The notes under the pieces were generated by a model that had not been told where the DNA came from, made no database searches, and worked only from the letters and a program-made list of their open reading frames with translations. From Gammaproteobacteria bacterium (GTDB lineage: Bacteria; Pseudomonadota; Gammaproteobacteria; Pseudomonadales; Pseudohongiellaceae), in the NCBI GenBank assembly GCA_019654215.1, contig BPDI01000001.1, positions 1-64,000 on the forward strand: 64,000 bases of DNA, written 5' to 3'. The position numbers were made by a program, and so were the translations under genes. Of this stretch, positions 14,469 to 38,314 are shown in pieces. Numbering within the stretch: position 1 is the first letter of the stretch; each line of letters begins with the position of its first letter.

Positions 14469-15011
14469 ATGTCTCAATTTGCCAATCGGCTAGCTCGAGT
14501 CCTTCTGTCCGCTTTAGTGGCAGTTTTAGCACTTGGGGGTCAGTTTGCGGCAGCTCTTGAAGAAGGGGATAAAGCGCCTGATTTCTCGCTGCAAGCTTCT
14601 GATGGTGCAACCTACACGCTTTCTCAGTTCGCTGGTGACAAGCCTGTAGTTATTGCCTTCTTTCCTAAAGCCTTTACCGGCGGCTGAACTATGCAATGTA
14701 AAGCGCTGCGTGACAGTGCCAGAGAAATTCAGAGTTTCGATGTTGCATACTTTATGGCCAGTGTAGATACGCTGGAAGACAACACAGCTTTTGCCGCTGA
14801 GCATGAAGCTAATTTTCCGATCCTTTCAGATCCTACAAAGGAAATGACTGGTGATTATGACGTCCTAATGGAAGTCGGATTTGCCAATCGCTGGACGTTC
14901 TATATCGATACGGACGGCACCGTCCTTAAGATCGACAAGGGAACCAACCCAGCAACGGCGGGACGAGATCTAGTAGCCAATATGGAAGAGCTGGGTTTCA
15001 ATAAGATCTAG
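14469..15011 (+). CDS. Candidate selenocysteine-containing peroxiredoxin (in-frame TGA at the peroxidatic Cys), exported
   Basis: 180 codons read through one in-frame TGA (14685-14687). A signal peptide ends near [22 protein letters not shown] and FPKAFTGG then lead to TGA and [10 protein letters not shown]. In AhpC/TSA peroxiredoxins this position, after the FTxG turn, is the peroxidatic cysteine. The remaining thioredoxin fold ([50 protein letters not shown]) is intact in the same frame, which argues against a decayed gene. A hairpin with SECIS-like features follows the TGA. GGAGG-like bases precede the ATG. It would reduce peroxides in the periplasm. Substitution error of a Cys codon is the main alternative. 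Confidence 0.8.
14688..14722 (+). promoter_or_regulatory. Candidate bacterial SECIS element
   Basis: Downstream of the TGA, GCGCTG (14703-14708) pairs with CAGTGC (14714-14719), six pairs with one G-U, around loop CGTGA. The loop starts 21 bases after the TGA and its second base is G. Bacterial SECIS hairpins that recruit SelB have their apical loop about 16-37 bases after the codon with a G in the first two loop bases. Seen by eye; not folded by program. Confidence 0.55.
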
Positions 15012-30898: not shown

Positions 30899-33507
30899 TT
30901 AGAAATTAACATTTATGCGGCCGTAGTAAAAGGCTCCTTGCCAGTCAACGTACGATCCAGATGCATAGACCCTTCCGCAACAGTAGTCACCGATTTGGTC
31001 TTTTTCAGGGTACTCGTCCCCTATGTTACGTCCACCAAGAGTTAAGGAAACCATATCATTGAGACGATAAGTTGCCTCTAGATCAAGAAACCATGTGGCG
31101 TCGTAATCTTGAATATTAGGCCATGGGTTTCTGTTTGAGTTCGACCACTCACCATAGTAGCTAGCCCTAGCCGTTAGGCGAAGGTTATCAATGGTATGTG
31201 TAAGCGTACCAACACCTTTCCAATCTGATAGCAAGTTCTCAAAATCGTACTCGCTTTCAACATTCAGATATTCACTGGGGTCAGAATCAAACTCTGTATC
31301 ATTCCAGCTTACGGCTATGGATAGGTCCGTTACCTGGGTGACTGGATATGTTGCAACTATATCTACACCTTCAGTTGTAGTGTCAAAGCCGTTGGCAAAA
31401 TAGAGCACACCACCAATAGTGTTAGCACCAGGAACTCCTGCAGCGTCTAACTTCAAGTAGTTCTGATAGGCGTCGCCTGCGGTTGGGTCAGTAGACACAT
31501 CTCTAGTCGAAACAGCTTGAGTTCGGTCTTCTATGTCGATCTGGTAATAGTCGACGGTCACATCAAGATCTCCAAGGCTTGCAACAAAACCTAAGGTCAA
31601 GTTGTCAGACTTTTCTGGCACTAGAGGAACAGCTCCAAGAGCTTGCGCTACAGGGCCGCCGGCCGGGAATAATCCGGTTGCGACCGGGAATCCGTTTGGT
31701 AAGCGCGTAGACACGTTGGTTGTACCTTGTTGCCCGGGAGTCGGAGCTCGGAATGCAGTACCGTAGGATCCTCGCAGTGCAAGGCCATCAGTCAGTTCAT
31801 ACCGGCCCGCAATCTTCCATGTAAGCTCAGAGTCGAAGTCATCATAGTCTTCGTATCTCAGCGCACCTTGAAGGAAAAGTTCGTCAGTAACATCAGCACT
31901 GAGGTCTCCGAATAGAGCATAAGAAGTTCTTTCATACAGCTCGGAAAATTGAGGTGAATAGCCCGGGAATCCATTAGAGCCAACACCTACAACCCTATAA
32001 ACCGGATCACTCGAATCCGCACAATTCAGGGTAGAGCCGTTAGCTATGACTGATGCACCAGCCGCAGTGGGCGTATTGCCGTTACAAAAGCCAAACGGAT
32101 CCTTAACCGCGTGAGGACCTGCTTTGTAGGAGTCAGGTTCCCCCTCAACAACTTCATAAGACTCGTCTAAATAGGTTGCGCCAAACGCAAAAACAACTGG
32201 GCTCGCCAGATTTGAATCGAATTCATAAGTGAAGTCAGCAGAAAATTGAGTTTCCTCATTAATCAGGTCTCCAGGTCTAAAACTCTTAGGAGAAGCTCGA
32301 CCCATCGAGGGATTAATCGTATTAGCTAATGTATATTGAATTTCATTTTCGCCGTGGCGTGCACTAAAGTCATAATTGAGGCCGTTGTCCCAATTCCCTC
32401 TAATACCACCAGCGAGTGAAAAATCTTCAATCTCGCCAAAGAATCTGGGAGTGAATCCACCAGGATATTTCTCTAACGGGTCATAAATGCCCCGTTCGAC
32501 TCACGGAGTTGTTCAATTGTTCCATTTCTCGGGTAACGATAGAAAAAGCTACCGTCTGATTCGCTCTCTCTGTAGTTACCAAATGCATATAACTCAGTGT
32601 CAGCGTCGATATCGTAACCAGAATTGAAGAACAAGCTTATAGCTTCAGCATCCGGCTCGCCCCAAGGCTGCACAACGTCACCATAACCTGTGTTAGCTGC
32701 GGCTGTACCGGCTTGATACGTTGCGTCTTCGGTAAACGCCGTGTATGACTTGCTTGAGTTATAGCCTGGAAGATTGGGATCTACACAAAACCATGAATTA
32801 CAATACTGTTCACCGCGACTTGTCGCGTCAGCCTCATAAATCTCAGCTGAAAGGCTAAGAAAGCCGCTATCACCTAAAGGAAGGCCGATGTTACCTGAAA
32901 TTGTGTACGTTTCTCCGTCTCCTTCAGAATATTCGCCTTGCTGAATGCTGAGGCTGCCGCCGGAATTATTCTCTTTAAGTCTAAAGTTGATAACACCTGC
33001 GATCGCGTCAGATCCATATTGTGCCGACGCTCCATCTCTAAGAACTTCCACACTGCCAATTGCAGATGCAGGAATAGTTGCTATGTCGGGGTTTTGGGTA
33101 CCGCTCCCGCCAATTGATACGAGCGCAGAACGATGGCGTCGTTTTGAATTCACCAATACCAAGGTTTTATCCGTAGGCAATCCTCGCAACTGTGCGGGAC
33201 GAATAAACGTCGCACCATCAGAGATTGGTTGCCGGGCTAAATTAAAAGAGGGAACAAGAGTTCTTAAGATATCGTTTGTATCCGTATAGGATACTGCCTC
33301 TAAATCTTCAGCCGAGAAAACGTCAATAGGAACGGGAGAGTCCCCAACTGTTCGTGGTCGGCCTCGAGCACCCGTTACGATTATTTCTTCTAATCCGCTA
33401 GCTTCTTCCTGTGCTTGTGCCACAGAAACAAACCCAGCGGGCGCTAGCATTCCTAGCGCTACAGCGCTAGCAAGAAGCTTTTTTGCCAATTTAGGTCTAC
33501 CGTTCAT
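30899..33507 (-). CDS. TonB-dependent outer-membrane receptor, one frameshift
   Basis: About 870 residues. A long signal (KKLLASAVALGMLAPAG) is followed by the TonB box and plug start LEEIIVTGARGRPR. The plug is seen in RGLPTDKTLVLVNSKRRH and VEVLRDGASAQYGSDAIAGV. The C-terminal beta barrel ends with a terminal aromatic (RINVNF). A shift near 32480 separates the plug and early barrel from the rest; bridging restores one protein. It imports a substrate across the outer membrane using the Ton system; substrate unknown. No sigma/anti-sigma pair is adjacent. Two cysteines in an extracellular loop (QYCNSWFC) could be a disulfide. Confidence 0.92.
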
Positions 33508-33939
33508 TTATTCCCCCTTTGGAATTAATGCTAACCAAATAACTAGTTGTTCTGAAAATCTAATTGATCTTTCTGGGATAAGTTAAGGCGCGCGTCGAGA
33601 GGTGGTTTGACAGAAAACTGTGGTTGCTACCCAATCTCGCGAAATGTCCTTTCCCCAAAAGGTTAAGCCTAATTTCCCTAATGCAAAATGTCCACAAAAG
33701 AAATGGTTATATCGTTCAGTTTATGCCTGTTTTTAGGACATTTTTCCTTTTTATGTTGAGAAATTTACAGTTTCGGGCCAACCACTACCAGTAGGGGCAT
33801 ATTTATCGATAAGCCACAACAGGTTGGTTAAGATTTACATAGAAAAATAGAGGAATTTATCGGACAAATAGCAATTTGAGAGTAAACTAGCGAATAATCT
33901 CCAGAAAGGCTCACTTCAGGCTGCTAAAGGAACACAAAA
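33508..33939. other. Divergent intergenic region
   Basis: 432 bases between the TonB receptor (minus) and the peroxiredoxin-like gene (plus), so promoters for both should be here. The A/T-rich part around 33720-33890 is the likeliest place. I see no convincing paired -35/-10 boxes, no riboswitch-like fold and no coding sequence. Confidence 0.4.
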
Positions 33940-34486
33940 ATGCCGCAGAAACTCAATCCCGGAGAACTTTTCCCCAGTTTGAATCTAAGCCTTTTAGGTG
34001 GGGGTTCTTTAAATATGCCAGAAGATTTGAGTGGTCCAATGACTCTCGCCTGTTCTATAGAGGCATTGGTGACCCTATTGTTGTCGGCTCTTAGCTGGCT
34101 ATGCGGCACGCCGTGATGCGTTTGCTGAACAAGGGGTAAAAATCATAGCAGGATCGGTGGATGATGCCGAAAAGACGGCGCCGATAGCCAAAAATCTGAA
34201 TTTTCCTGTTGCCATTAAATGACTCGAGCTGATGGCGATGCTATGGGCTCTTGGTGGGAAGAAAAGCGAGAAATAATTCAACCAAGCGAGTTTCTCTTGT
34301 CAGAAAAAGGGAAAGTATGATTCAACTTATTCCAATGGACCTATAGGTAGGATGGATCCGGAAGAAACTCTTTCATTAGTTAAGTATCTGAACGAGCAAA
34401 GGGCCAAAGTTAAGGCAGCATCTAGAACTCTTCTTTCTAGGATTTCTATAGGGGGAGGGAATTATGACGACAATAATTGCGTTTAG
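33940..34486 (+). CDS. Candidate selenocysteine-containing AhpC/TSA-like protein (TGA in a UxxC motif), frameshifted
   Basis: About 180 codons with several indels. The start PQKLNPGELFPSLNL and LSGPMTL leads into LFYRG (indels near 34050 and 34063). HW, TGA (34070-34072), then PYCCRLLAGYAARRDAFAEQ continue in a single frame. Relatives have FYRGxWCPYC, so the TGA stands exactly at the first Cys of a CxxC site, giving UxxC. EQGVKIIAGSVDDAEKTAPI and, after a shift near 34225, MTRADGDAMGSWWEEKRE and IIQPSEFLLSEKGKV complete the thioredoxin fold. AGG stands nine bases before the ATG. It may be a thiol-dependent oxidoreductase or peroxidase. The end is uncertain because of indels. Confidence 0.7.
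34085..34113 (+). promoter_or_regulatory. Candidate bacterial SECIS element
   Basis: Lower stem CGGC (34085-34088) with GCCG (34110-34113), an internal loop, upper stem GCTG (34094-34097) with CGGC (34104-34107) including one U-G pair, and apical loop GCTATG. The loop begins 25 bases after the TGA and its first base is G, as expected for SelB recognition. It is weaker than the hairpin at 14703; judged by eye only. Confidence 0.4.
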
Positions 34487-34820
34487 TTTCGCAGCAATAT
34501 CCATCGCTGCTCTTATCTTTTTGGTTGCTCCCGGAGTAATTCTTGAACCATTCACTTTCCCGCTGGAAGCGGTGTTTACCAAGGCTTGGAATACCATAAG
34601 AGCCATTCTCGGTATCGCATTTGTCGTCGTCGCTCCTGGCAGCCAGAATCCGACACTGATATATACTCTCGGCGTTTTATTCTTAGTCGCAGCGATTGTT
34701 GTCGGTGTGATGCCGAAGGAACATTTTGTTAATCTAACTAATCGGTACCGCTATTTTCCTCAGTGGGCTCGCGATTGGGTGGGGCGCTGGCACTCATGGC
34801 TCTTTGGTACCTGGCGCTGA
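34464..34820 (+). CDS. Small inner-membrane protein of unknown function
   Basis: 118 residues with three hydrophobic helices (IIAFSFAAISIAALIFLVA, TIRAILGIAFVVVA and IYTLGVLFLVAAIVVGV) and a basic, Trp-rich cytoplasmic tail (PQWARDWVGRWHSWLFG). It has no recognised domain. GGGGGAGGG lies just before the ATG. The gene overlaps or touches the end of the peroxiredoxin-like gene, so it may be translated with it. Confidence 0.65.
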   Translation: MTTIIAFSFAAISIAALIFLVAPGVILEPFTFPLEAVFTKAWNTIRAILGIAFVVVAPGSQNPTLIYTLGVLFLVAAIVVGVMPKEHFVNLTNRYRYFPQWARDWVGRWHSWLFGTWR

Positions 34821-34945
34821 TTTTACTTTAGCAATTTGTAACGAATGGTCATTCTTGTCTAGGTCTGCTTGGTCCGAGCAATTAGGCTCGTGTTAGAATT
34901 TTAATCGGAACCAAAGCTTCTGAACTTCTCTTGGGAATGACTTAA

Positions 34946-36965
34946 GTGGTTGAGACAAAAATAATAAAACGATCATTACTTAAAATTTTCTGCGCTGTTG
35001 CTGGTCTAGCAATCGGCCACAATTCTTTGGCCCAAGACAATGAACAAGCTCATCCATTAGTTCCTCTGTTTGAAGAAAACTGTGCCACCTGCCAGGCCCT
35101 ACTACCCAAACCGCGGGCATTAACTTTAGTGCCCTCATGCAGGAAACACCGCTGGTAAAAAACCTGGAAACCTGGCGTCGGGTAATCGGCGCATTAGAAG
35201 TTGGAAAATGCCTCCTCCAGAAGCGCCTCAACCTTCCGATGAAACCAGAGCTGAGATGCTGACGCTGTTACGCCAGGACATTGAGGAATTCGATTTTTCG
35301 GTCTTGGACAATCCCGGCTTCGAGCTTATGCGTCGACTCACACACACGGAGTACGATAATACTGTTCGTGATTTATTCGGTGTTGAATTAAATGTTACTG
35401 AACGATTTCCTACAGAGCTGATTGGCAATAGTGGTTTTGAGAATTCTTCAAATACTTTGTTTCTTCAGTCTTCATTAATGGAAAGATACATTGGTGCTGC
35501 CCAAACTATTGTCGATTTGGGATTGCCATCTGAACCAACAACCGATGCACATTTTCTTACTCGAGAATTAATTTATGTGATGACACCTGACGCTAATATG
35601 TCCGAAGAAGCAGCAAGCACAGCGGTTTTCGAATCCTTTTTAAACAAGGCCTATAGACGTCCGGTTACTGATAAAGAATTAAGCAATGCAAAAGAGCAAT
35701 TTTTTGCGGCTCGCACCAGTGGACTGTCATACGAAGGCTCGATTAAACAAGTCATCCAATCAGTTTTAATCTCCCCAAAATTTTTATTGAGGGTCGAAGT
35801 AGGTAGCGAGGGAGCCGATTCTTATCGGGTTAATGATTATGAGCTTGCTTCAAGACTTTCTTATTTTCTCTGGGCAACGATGCCTGACCAGGAGCTTTTT
35901 GATTTAGCTGCAGAAGATAAATTAAGTGATCCAGAAGTTATTCAACAACAATTGTCACGAATGTTGGCGGATGAAAAAGCCAACACATTAGGCGATCTTT
36001 TTGCAGCGCAGTGGTTGGGCTTTCATAATGTTGGAACCCGCATCTGGCTGGATCCAATCGATAATCCCTGGTGTACCGACACTCTCATGAACGCCATGCG
36101 CGACGAGACTTCCATGTTTTTCATGTCGTTGTTGCGTGACGACTTGCCTATTCGCACACTGATCGATGCAGATTTCACCTTCGTGAATGAAGAGCTGGCC
36201 AGCACTTTGTATGGTATGGACTACATTCGAGGTGATCACATGCGCCGGGTTCCGATTTATAACCCTAATCGGGGCGGTGTTCTTGGGCACGCCAGCATTC
36301 TCGCTTTAACATCGAATTACAAGACCACCAGTCCGGTTAAGCGTGGTGTGTATGTACTCGACACCATATTAGGCACACCCCCTCCTGAGCCTCCGCCCAA
36401 TGTTGGCATATTGAGCCAAGAGTTGCAGGAGATGGAAGAAATGAGTTTCCGCGAAAAAGTGGAGATGCATTCTTCCAACGCATACTGTAGTGGTTGCCAC
36501 AGCAGAATCGATCCTATTGGTTTCAGTATGGAAAACTTTGCCTACTTTGGTCAGTGGCGCGACACTTATGATTTCAGAACCCGAGTGGATTCCCCCGATG
36601 AAGCTGATGAATCAATCACTCTCAATACAGAAACGAGCCCTGATCCTATAACTATTCACTTTAAGAATACGAGAAGACCAATTTCTGCCGGAGGATCGTT
36701 GCCTGATGGAACAAGATTCGATGGTCCAGCAGGTTTGAAAGAAGCGTTGCTACGAGATCGTCATGACGATTTAATTAGACAGGTCGTTTCGAAAATGTTG
36801 GCTTATTCGTTAGGACGCCAACTTGAGTACTACGATGAACCGGCAGTTTTAAAAATCATTGCCGCACTCGAAGCTAACGACTACCGATTTCAAACACTCT
36901 TAGAAGAAGTTGTAGCGAGTTATCCGTTTCAGTATAAAAAAAACCCAGGCGAGGAGATTCACTAA
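34946..36965 (+). CDS. Exported DUF1592-type multidomain cytochrome-like protein, pair 1
   Basis: About 673 residues with one indel near 35105. A signal ends near HNSLAQ. FEENCATC starts a heme site that continues in the next frame. FELMRRLTHTEYDNTVRDLF is DUF1587, AYRRPVTDKELSNAKEQF is DUF1595, VNDYELASRLSYFLWATMPD is DUF1592, SILALTSNYKTTSPVKRGVY with CSGCHSRIDPIGFSMENF is DUF1588 with a second heme site, and LAYSLGRQLEYYDEPAVLKI is DUF1585. This domain order is known from planctomycetes and marine proteobacteria; the function is not established. The stop overlaps the next start (TAATG), so it is translationally coupled to the DUF1552 gene. Confidence 0.88.
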
Positions 36966-38314
36966 TGAAATCCTGTACTTTCTCCAGGCGCGCTATTCTG
37001 CGCGGTATTGGAGCAGCGGTTGCATTGCCATTGATGGATGTTGTGCCTGCTTTCGCACAATCCCCATTGCCAATTCCGTCTGGAACAAATCGACTCGCTT
37101 ACCTCTATTTTCCGAATGGAATTCCCAGAGGTATCTGGTATCCAGAAGAGACGGGGCCGAATGGCGAGCTGATAAAACTTAATGAGTGGATGAGTCCGCT
37201 TGAACCTCACAAGCAGGACATCAATATTCCTAGCAATGTGTGGACACCAGAAGGTAACGGTCATGTTAATGGCACACCAACTTGGTTAACCGGACACAGT
37301 TATGACTCACGCGCTGTAAATGCCGGAGGAGTTTCCGCCGATCAAATCGTAGCTCGTCATTTACGGGAAGAAACATTGCTCCCTTCATTGGAACTATCAA
37401 CCAAGGGTGAGGGTTACTTTTCTAATTCATTGCCACGAAATGCTATCTCCTGGTCTGCACCAGATAGGCCCATGGCAAGAGAAATCGAACCGCGCACAAT
37501 TTTCGATCGTATGTTTAGTACACAATCTAGTGTGAACAGTAATCGCTCTGTGATGGATGCTGTGCTTGCCGAAGCTCGATCATTAAATAGTGTGGTTAGC
37601 TCGGCTGATAGGTTACGTCTGGACGAATATTTTGAATCAATTCGCGCACTAGAGCGGCGCATTGAGTTTGCAGAAACACAATCAACTGAAATGGCAAATG
37701 ATGGCGCGCTTACCGATACGCTGGTTGCACCTACCCCGGGTATTCCTGCAGATCATCAGGCCTATATTCGTTTGATGATGGATTTGATGATCATGGCGTT
37801 TCAGTCCAATGCAACTCGTGTTGTGACTTTTATGCTGGATCACGGTCAATCAAATCGCTATTTCAATTTTATTCCAGAAGTTAAAGGTACTTGGCATGCG
37901 CTATCTCACTATCAAAATGCTTCAGGCATGACGGAAGATGATGATGGCACTACATCCTGGGAGTCAGTAGAGCAAAAGCGTGCCATGTATGCTGAAGTGA
38001 TTCGCTGGCACCACACGCAAGTCGCTTATTTATTCGATCGCATGAAGTCTATTCGTGAGTCCGACGGTAATACCTTATTAGATAACTCAATGATCCTAAT
38101 GGGTGGCGCGCTTGGTGACGGTAACGAGCACGACGCTTCCCACTTGCCTACCTTATTGGCGGGTCGCGGCGGAGGAACTATTCGCACTGGTCGTTTTATA
38201 GAGCATGAAGAGCAGATTGACCTGGGCACGATCCATCTAGCGCTTATGCAGCGCATGGGTGTGCAACTGGATAAGTTAGGCACGGCAGAATCGGCGTTCC
38301 AAAATCTAATATAG
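36965..38314 (+). CDS. DUF1552 protein with twin-arginine signal, pair 1
   Basis: 449 residues. The N terminus SRRAILRGIGAAVALPLMDV is a Tat-type signal. The body has LAYLYFPNGIPRGIWYPEE, GTPTWLTGHSY, SVMDAVLAEARSLNSVVSSAD, DLMIMAFQSNATRVVTFMLD, NSMILMGGALGDGNEHDA and HLPTLLAGRGGG, all characteristic of DUF1552, which belongs to the alkaline-phosphatase/sulfatase-like (DUF1501-related) group. It is intact. It always sits behind a DUF1592 gene, here and at 61483, so the two proteins probably work together in the periplasm. Confidence 0.9.
   Translation: MKSCTFSRRAILRGIGAAVALPLMDVVPAFAQSPLPIPSGTNRLAYLYFPNGIPRGIWYPEETGPNGELIKLNEWMSPLEPHKQDINIPSNVWTPEGNGHVNGTPTWLTGHSYDSRAVNAGGVSADQIVARHLREETLLPSLELSTKGEGYFSNSLPRNAISWSAPDRPMAREIEPRTIFDRMFSTQSSVNSNRSVMDAVLAEARSLNSVVSSADRLRLDEYFESIRALERRIEFAETQSTEMANDGALTDTLVAPTPGIPADHQAYIRLMMDLMIMAFQSNATRVVTFMLDHGQSNRYFNFIPEVKGTWHALSHYQNASGMTEDDDGTTSWESVEQKRAMYAEVIRWHHTQVAYLFDRMKSIRESDGNTLLDNSMILMGGALGDGNEHDASHLPTLLAGRGGGTIRTGRFIEHEEQIDLGTIHLALMQRMGVQLDKLGTAESAFQNLI

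What the first reader, a model, noticed from the sequence alone, without database searches (positions are those of the whole stretch)
33940..34486. Second TGA-for-Cys case: an AhpC/TSA-like protein with a UPYC motif
Seen: FYRG (after a one-base indel) is followed by His-Trp, TGA (34070-34072), Pro-Tyr-Cys and an uninterrupted helix. Relatives have FYRGxWCPYC, so TGA replaces the first Cys of CxxC. A two-part hairpin with apical loop GCTATG starting 25 bases after the TGA could serve as SECIS. Two independent TGAs in one window, both exactly at redox cysteines of thioredoxin-fold proteins, are hard to explain by random error. Known: peroxiredoxin-like UxxC selenoproteins were reported in marine metagenomes. 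Indels in this gene lower certainty.
Basis: partly seen in the sequence, partly recalled or inferred. Interest (0 to 1): 0.85.

Follow-up and report, generated by a model that had tools for sequence, protein, structure and literature searches.

The report
Selenoprotein gene with paired RNA hairpins
A marine bacterium's redox gene uses a stop codon to insert the rare amino acid selenocysteine, and the RNA signal behind that codon appears to be built from two hairpins in a row, an arrangement that the published model of such signals does not cover.

Summary
TGA 34070-34072 lies in frame at the first redox position of an AhpC/TSA-like UPYC motif, and is very probably a selenocysteine codon. The same bin holds tRNA-Sec, SelA, SelB and SelD. 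All 34 matching genomes of 146 searched have exactly one TGA there, as do 72 of 80 named loci; the other 8, all distant, have Cys. In 390 genomes of the order, SelB is over cut-off in 10 of 10 Sec carriers and 1 of 17 Cys carriers. The frame breaks look like assembly errors: they cluster over four adjacent genes, while mismatches keep a coding pattern. Instead two tandem hairpins follow the TGA, both selected beyond the protein; the first also covaries. The second has a CGUG loop at 39 nt, like the loops of sister genes at 20-24 nt. I infer that hairpin 1 folds out 17 nt and brings the true SECIS, hairpin 2, into range. In 8 of 72 loci hairpin 2 is missing and hairpin 1 has a GUU loop. The protein kind is known (Prx-like UxxC); the tandem signal is a new variant.

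The parts
33940..34440 (+). Prx-like (AhpC/TSA, PF00578) selenoprotein gene; mostly 157-165 codons in relatives; five frame breaks in this assembly; the 3' end is uncertain (about 34424-34486)
34070..34072 (+). TGA read as selenocysteine, first position of the UPYC redox motif
34083..34099 (+). Hairpin 1 (HP1): 7-bp stem, loop CUU at 34090-34092, 17 nt after the TGA; proposed spacer hairpin
34106..34123 (+). Hairpin 2 (HP2): loop CGUGAU at 34112-34117, 39 nt after the TGA; proposed SelB-binding SECIS
14469..15011 (+).

Best explanation
This is a genuine selenoprotein gene of a gammaproteobacterium (nearest named relatives are MAGs labelled Gammaproteobacteria, Pseudomonadales, OM182 or Pseudohongiella). 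It encodes a small AhpC/TSA-family redox protein, probably a thiol-disulfide oxidoreductase, whose active site is U-P-Y-C. UGA 34070 is decoded as Sec by SelB with tRNA-Sec, both encoded in the same bin. SHOWN: the conserved TGA, the machinery genes, and two tandem hairpins downstream that are kept beyond what the protein demands. INFERRED (about 0.65): SelB binds HP2, whose CGUG loop matches the SECIS loops of other Sec genes in these genomes. HP1 folds 17 nt out of the path, so the 39-nt linear distance acts like about 22 nt, close to the 20-24 nt of the sister genes. INFERRED from known chemistry: the selenolate attacks a disulfide or peroxide and is resolved by the Cys three residues on. 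The frame breaks are most likely assembly errors.
For: Machinery: tRNA-Sec 65.5 bits, over cut-off, and ARAGORN anticodon tca; SelB 310 bits; SelD 282; SelA 367.9 with neighbours. Conservation: 34 of 34 matching genomes, out of 146 searched, have exactly one TGA; 29 of 29 loci read have it at UP[YF]C; 72 of 80 named loci TGA, 8 Cys. Order-wide, 27 of 390 genomes match: 10 Sec (138-295 bits) and 17 Cys (60-88 bits); SelB over cut-off in 10 of 10, 1 of 17 and 57 of 390 overall (Fisher). RNA: the codons whose synonymous identity exceeds expectation by more than 0.35 are +4, +5, +13, +14 and +16 after U and no others in the gene; +13, +14 and +16 are identical in 29 of 29. Against a synonymous-codon null, HP1 z=13.6 and HP2 z=16.6 (64 loci), 8.4 and 10.1 after thinning to 22; six shifted controls z -3.6 to 1.0. 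HP1 covariation: 22 two-sided cells, 0 of 500 shuffles as high; 9 such cells left in 29 thinned loci; the competing long pairing 2 cells, 390 of 500. Loops: 21 of 38 other TGA genes sampled in 16 genomes have a CGUG hairpin at 20, 21 or 24 nt, against 0.7 (maximum 5) in codon-shuffled copies. Purifying selection: 30 of 41 mismatches to the nearest relative are at codon position 3.
Against: No experiment shows Se incorporation. HP2 at 39 nt lies outside the published 16-37 nt range (PMC13188914, passages read), while HP1 at 17 nt lies inside it, and HP1 keeps a G-first loop in 27 of 64 HP2 loci. HP2's covariation is weak: 6 two-sided cells in 73 rows, 4 in 29 thinned loci, and a +2 slide gives more (23, though only 57.6% pairing); its case rests on frozen codons, the synonymous null and the loop. 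For HP1 the number of pairs with two-sided changes is not unusual (3; 181 of 500 shuffles), and 12 of the 22 cells are one pair type at one position. SelB is also present in many near relatives without this gene (83 of 146 genomes over cut-off, of which 30 carriers), so there it discriminates little. The window copy cannot be translated as assembled; no polished reads were available.
Confidence: 0.9

Rival explanations
1. HP1 is the SelB-binding SECIS in all members, at the ordinary distance; HP2 is an accessory element, for example a pause or anti-termination hairpin.
For: HP1 keeps 4 to 7 of 7 pairs in all 72 Sec loci and has the stronger covariation; its loop at 17 nt fits the published 16-37 nt range. 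The 8 loci without HP2 presumably work with HP1 alone. G-first HP1 loops occur in 27 of 64 HP2 loci.
Against: In 37 of 64 HP2 loci, and in the window, the HP1 loop lacks the conserved first G. HP2 has the CGUG loop that is common in the other Sec genes of these genomes and frozen codons in 29 of 29. Where HP2 is missing, HP1 has a GUU loop in 8 of 8, as if it had taken over; L223, found later, agrees.
Confidence: 0.25
2. The window copy is a decaying pseudogene of a former selenoprotein.
For: Five frame breaks in under 300 bases against the nearest relative.
Against: Twelve one-base gaps inside four adjacent genes between 32492 and 35205 are all bases missing from the window, and no gap lies in 35206-37398; 30 of 41 mismatches sit at codon position 3, like the neighbour gene's 105 of 165. 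SelA and SelB of the same bin are broken too. Both hairpins can still form in the window.
Confidence: 0.05
3. The TGA is a base-calling error for a Cys codon, or an ordinary stop.
For: The patch is error-prone.
Against: The same TGA is found in 33 other genomes and 72 named loci (the two sets overlap). The frame stays open for over 100 residues after it in the 29 relatives read.
Confidence: 0.01
4. UGA is a sense codon genome-wide (a reassigned code).
For: Several TGA-containing ORFs in one genome.
Against: TGA ends 10 of 50 mechanically listed ORFs of at least 150 codons in the window; the TGAs read sit at redox Cys positions and are followed by hairpins; the Sec machinery is present.
Confidence: 0.01

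Closest known systems
Prx-like thiol:disulfide oxidoreductase selenoproteins (PF00578, UxxC; 'Prx-like 1' of the Global Ocean Sampling selenoproteome, PMC2398784; Prx-like UXXC of the Sargasso Sea set, PMC1088965; listed in PMC13188914)
   Same: Same Pfam family, Sec as first residue of UxxC, reported from marine bacteria, downstream hairpin.
   Different: No Cys form was found among the close relatives, no NCBIfam model reaches its cut-off in three relatives, and the recoding region has two tandem hairpins. Whether those papers' reads include this subfamily could not be checked.
Bacterial SECIS model (bSECIS; PMC13188914 Fig. 2 legend)
   Same: Small apical loop with G-U near its start, stem of at least 4 bp, downstream of UGA in the coding region.
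   Different: The G-U loop hairpin lies 39 nt from UGA (model 16-37) behind a second conserved hairpin. A simplified version of the model passes 21 of 73 sequences, and 11 of 73 with the G[G/U] loop pattern.
Sec peroxiredoxin, TxxU type (window 14469-15011)
   Same: Same genome, same PF00578, same CGUG loop.
   Different: Peroxidatic TxxU motif, hairpin at 21 nt.
ResA-type thiol-disulfide oxidoreductases and peroxiredoxins of known structure
   Same: Best PDB sequence matches are ResA (1.5e-07) and peroxiredoxins (from 2.3e-06).
   Different: Remote similarity only; their active-site residues were not compared here.

Membership tests
Prx-like UxxC selenoprotein (PF00578) | AhpC/TSA domain | tested here: met
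   Window fragment 29.3 bits (cut-off 26); full relatives L037, L038, L059 50.8-58.9 bits
Prx-like UxxC selenoprotein (PF00578) | In-frame UGA at the first Cys of CxxC, with Cys homologues | tested here: met
   34 of 34 matching genomes TGA; 72 TGA and 8 Cys of 80; 18 of 18 distant order-wide loci Cys
Prx-like UxxC selenoprotein (PF00578) | Host encodes SelA, SelB, SelD, tRNA-Sec | tested here: met
   SelA and SelB are frame-broken in this assembly
Prx-like UxxC selenoprotein (PF00578) | Selenium present in the protein | not testable with these tools
   needs mass spectrometry or 75Se labelling
Canonical bSECIS (PMC13188914) | Spacing UGA to apical loop 16-37 nt for the hairpin with a G[G/U] loop | tested here: not met
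   HP2 loop starts 39 nt after the TGA; HP1 at 17 nt has loop CUU without G in the window
Canonical bSECIS (PMC13188914) | G in the first two loop positions, stem of at least 4 bp, loop of 3-9 nt | tested here: met
   HP2: 4-bp contiguous stem, loop CGUGAU
Canonical bSECIS (PMC13188914) | MFE <= -7.5 kcal/mol | tested here: inconclusive
   HP1 -7.1, HP2 -3.5, HP2 with its lower stem -8.3
Typical peroxiredoxin | Peroxidatic PxxxTxxC motif (recalled) | tested here: not met
   The site is [FV][YF]RG[HY]WUP[YF]C in relatives; in the window only the 14685 gene was seen with the TxxU form

The most novel reading that the evidence does not exclude
A bacterial SECIS that works at a distance because a conserved spacer hairpin folds out the intervening RNA, with evolutionary handover: where the distal CGUG hairpin is lost, the spacer hairpin carries a GUU loop and serves as the SECIS itself. 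If so, the ribosome-to-SelB geometry, not the nucleotide count, sets Sec insertion in bacteria.
Probability: 0.5. Interest if true: 0.65.

Novelty: new variant of a known kind. Interest (0 to 1): 0.5.

Why it matters
It supports a selenoprotein subfamily in which no Cys form was found among close relatives. Its recoding signal falls outside the standard search model, so SECIS-based searches would probably miss many members (21 of 73 pass a simplified version). The tandem hairpins, with natural variants that keep one or both, offer a ready-made test of what sets the allowed UGA-to-SECIS distance in bacteria.

Tried and rejected
A single long pairing of codons +4/+5 with +13 to +16: 97.1% paired in the 30-row set but with no two-sided change, and in 73 rows 2 two-sided cells against a shuffle mean of 2.6. 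Genome-wide TGA reassignment. Pseudogene. Rfam gave no match, neither in 34000-34300 at E up to 5 nor in the whole window at gathering scores, so there was no curated SECIS family to lean on.

Led nowhere or failed: searches (a tblastn option in my script, nothing anchored; time-out), both rerun in corrected form. One search read minus-strand loci the wrong way round and was redone. In the 30-row set, covariation of the two hairpins together was weak (5 two-sided cells, 3 of 500 shuffles); HP1's became clear with 73 rows, HP2's stayed modest and is nearly gone after thinning (4 cells in 29 loci that include HP2-less ones). L126 was counted without HP2 by the automatic rule (63/9 split) and moved by hand to the HP2 group (CGGG loop) for (64/8). 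For the SECIS comparison I fetched 40 TGA-bearing PF00578 matches of those listed (a cut list), not all of them; two (L202, L206) were the gene under study and were dropped, leaving 38. The distances come from picking the longest stem: 33 of 38 fall at 20-23 nt, 3 at 35, one each at 13 and 16; codon-shuffled copies give 7.2 (maximum 13) at 20-23 and 18.5 (maximum 26) with any such hairpin. Alignment A2 holds 20 of the 29 relatives read. The free energy of the region in the 8 HP2-less loci is not clearly lower than the null (-11.4 against -10.3 +- 1.2).

Full report
Observation. The window reads His-Trp-TGA-Pro-Tyr-Cys-Cys-Arg with TGA at 34070-34072, followed by an open stretch of about 50 residues in that frame. 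The start (33940, MPQKLNPGELFPSLNLSLL...) is in another frame, the part from about 34222 to 34316 is again out of the TGA's frame, and the C-terminal part from about 34325 is back in it. The fragment 34064-34219 with TGA read as Cys matches PF00578 at 29.3 bits against a cut-off of 26.

The machinery is in the same bin. The window's assembly (2.96 Mb, 71 contigs, 72.9% complete) has a tRNA-Sec over the Rfam cut-off at 65.5 bits, confirmed by ARAGORN with anticodon tca, SelB at 310 bits, SelD at 282 bits and SelA at 367.9 bits with its neighbours in the frame. SelA and SelB lie in pieces in different frames, as the target gene does.

Conservation of the TGA. The 52-residue fragment matched 34 of 146 genomes (own genome included) at E<=1e-6, and all 34 matches contain exactly one TGA. 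Of these, 29 relatives' loci were read in full: all 29 have TGA at UP[YF]C in open frames of 129-165 residues counted from the first ATG. Among 80 named loci from GTDB species genomes (the best 80 of 252 confirmed), 72 have TGA and 8 have TGC or TGT. The 8 Cys forms are the most distant (31-41% identity), five of them from Actinomycetota or Chloroflexota records. In 390 genomes of the order, 27 match the 20-sequence alignment at E<=1e-15: 10 Sec carriers (own included) at 138-295 bits, all with TGA at the site, and 17 genomes whose 18 loci have Cys at the site, mostly in a YRGxHC motif, at 60-88 bits. SelB is over its cut-off in 10 of 10 Sec carriers, in 1 of 17 Cys carriers (G483) and in 57 of 390 overall. 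In the closer set, 30 of 34 carriers have SelB over cut-off; of the other four, G016 and G032 have a match under it that looks like a partial SelB, G040 only a match at the level that an EF-Tu would give, and G019 none at E<=1e-55. In that set SelB is common anyway: 83 of 146 genomes are over cut-off.

The frame breaks. The nearest relative, MAG UBA3498 (L066), aligns over 6.47 kb at 89.8% identity. Between 32492 and 35205 there are twelve one-base gaps inside four neighbouring genes, each a base missing from the window (one in the TonB-receptor-like gene, five in this gene, four in the next small gene, two in the gene after that). Further small gaps of both directions lie in the stretches between the genes (33636-33940, 34423-34457), and one compensating pair lies near 32133; none lies in 35206-37398. 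Of 41 mismatches in this gene 30 are at codon position 3, against 105 of 165 in the downstream gene. This fits a poor-quality patch of the assembly over genes under normal selection, not the decay of one gene. TGA ends 10 of 50 mechanically listed ORFs of at least 150 codons in the window, so it is not reassigned.

The recoding signal. In 29 relatives the codons whose synonymous identity exceeds the pooled expectation by more than 0.35 are +4 (CGC), +5 (CGG), +13 (CGC), +14 (CGT) and +16 (GCG) after U, and no others; the last three are the same in 29 of 29. They fall in two hairpins: HP1 (window 34083-34099, loop 17 nt after the TGA) and HP2 (34106-34123, loop 39 nt after the TGA). I tested them against a null that redraws synonymous codons from the usage of the same genes outside this region (400 draws). 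In 64 loci with HP2, HP1 pairs 6.28 of 7 (null 4.35, z=13.6) and HP2 5.86 of 6 (null 4.42, z=16.6); after thinning to 22 loci z is 8.4 and 10.1; six shifted copies of the HP1 geometry give z from -3.6 to 1.0. On 73 aligned sequences HP1 has 22 cells changed on both sides (0 of 500 shuffles as high); 12 of them are one pair type at one position, probably one inherited change, and the number of pairs with such changes (3) is not unusual (181 of 500); 9 two-sided cells at three pairs remain in 29 thinned loci. HP2 has 6 (1 of 500), 4 after thinning: too few to lean on. The competing long pairing has 2, below the shuffle mean.

Which hairpin is the SECIS? In 40 TGA-bearing PF00578 genes taken from 16 relatives' genomes, 38 are other genes than this one; 21 of 38 have a hairpin of at least 4 bp around a CGUG loop 20, 21 or 24 nt after the TGA (codon-shuffled copies: 0.7 on average, maximum 5), and 38 of 38 have a hairpin of at least 5 bp with a G in the first two loop positions, 33 of them at 20-23 nt (shuffled: 7.2, maximum 13). 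The window's own other case has loop CGUGA at 21 nt. HP2 has the same CGUG loop but at 39 nt; subtracting the 17 nt folded into HP1 leaves 22 nt. HP1's loop in the window is CUU, without G, and 37 of 64 HP2 loci lack a G in first place there. Eight of 72 loci lack HP2: L111, and seven that group with one HP2 locus (L114, Myxococcota) at 97/94 support. All eight have the HP1 loop GUU with codons CTG TTA, against 7 of 64 HP2 loci; their HP1 is still selected (z=4.7) and the HP2 position is not (z=0.2). Two loci found later lack the CGUG loop and have the same HP1 apex: L223 (2 of 6 HP2 pairs) and L222, which however keeps 5 of 6 HP2 pairs around another loop, GCGGAC. I read this as a handover of the SelB-binding role between two hairpins. 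It rests on few independent events. The tree puts loci with HP2 on the deep branches of the Sec clade, but the root by Cys forms has only 84/53 support, so the direction is unsure.

Comparison with the literature. The protein kind is known: UxxC Prx-like selenoproteins were reported from the Sargasso Sea (21 UXXC sequences, PMC1088965) and, with pfam00578, from Global Ocean Sampling (225 'Prx-like 1', PMC2398784), and are listed in a 2026 review (PMC13188914); I saw found passages and tables of these three papers, not their figures. The review gives the bacterial SECIS model as a 3-9 nt loop, 4-16 bp stem, G in the first two loop positions, spacing 16-37 nt and MFE <= -7.5, and says that a subset of elements does not fit. 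My simplified version of it (contiguous stems only) passes 21 of 73 sequences, and 11 of 73 with the G[G/U] pattern, while 58 of 73 have a G[G/U]-loop hairpin beyond 37 nt. No paper listed in my searches (listings only, some cut) is, by its title and abstract start, about tandem SECIS elements in bacteria, and no listed paper holds both 'OM182' or 'Pseudohongiella' and 'selenocysteine'. I also saw found passages of PMC12013277 and PMC8659212; neither describes tandem bacterial elements in the passages shown.

Function. The best PDB sequence matches are ResA-type thiol-disulfide oxidoreductases (1.5e-07) and peroxiredoxins (from 2.3e-06); no NCBIfam model reaches its cut-off in three full-length relatives. 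With UxxC instead of the TxxU peroxidatic motif, a thiol-disulfide or peroxide reductase is the likeliest activity; that step is inference from the motif.

Noticed in passing
window 14469-15011: Sec peroxiredoxin ORF without frame breaks, TGA 14685-14687 ([14 protein letters not shown]), and a 6-bp hairpin with loop CGUGA 21 nt downstream: an ordinary TxxU selenoprotein.
   Followed up: partly
G000:C5:101023-101487 (L026) and G000:C13:49129-49524 (L027): Two more single-TGA AhpC/TSA genes in the same bin, with W-U-P-[YF]-C motifs and hairpins with loops CGUGG and CGUGC 20 nt after the TGA.
   Followed up: partly
window 32492-35205: A patch of the assembly with twelve one-base gaps inside four genes against a 90% identical relative, and none in the 2.2 kb that follow: gene calls here will be fragmentary.
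   Followed up: yes
L111's genome (G147, record CATOTI010000002.1): At least 11 of its 21 PF00578 matches hold exactly one TGA (listing, which was cut): a very selenoprotein-rich bacterium.
   Followed up: no
L114 (JAPYTP010000063.1): A record named Myxococcota carries this otherwise gammaproteobacterial Sec gene, HP2 included: horizontal transfer or a mis-binned contig.
   Followed up: no
L220, L221: Both hairpins look competent: HP1 with loop GUU and HP2 with CGUG, a possible intermediate of the handover.
   Followed up: no
window 35208-38314: Two long neighbouring genes downstream look like the DUF1592/DUF1552 pair of planctomycete-type cytochrome clusters (names recalled, not searched).
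   Followed up: no
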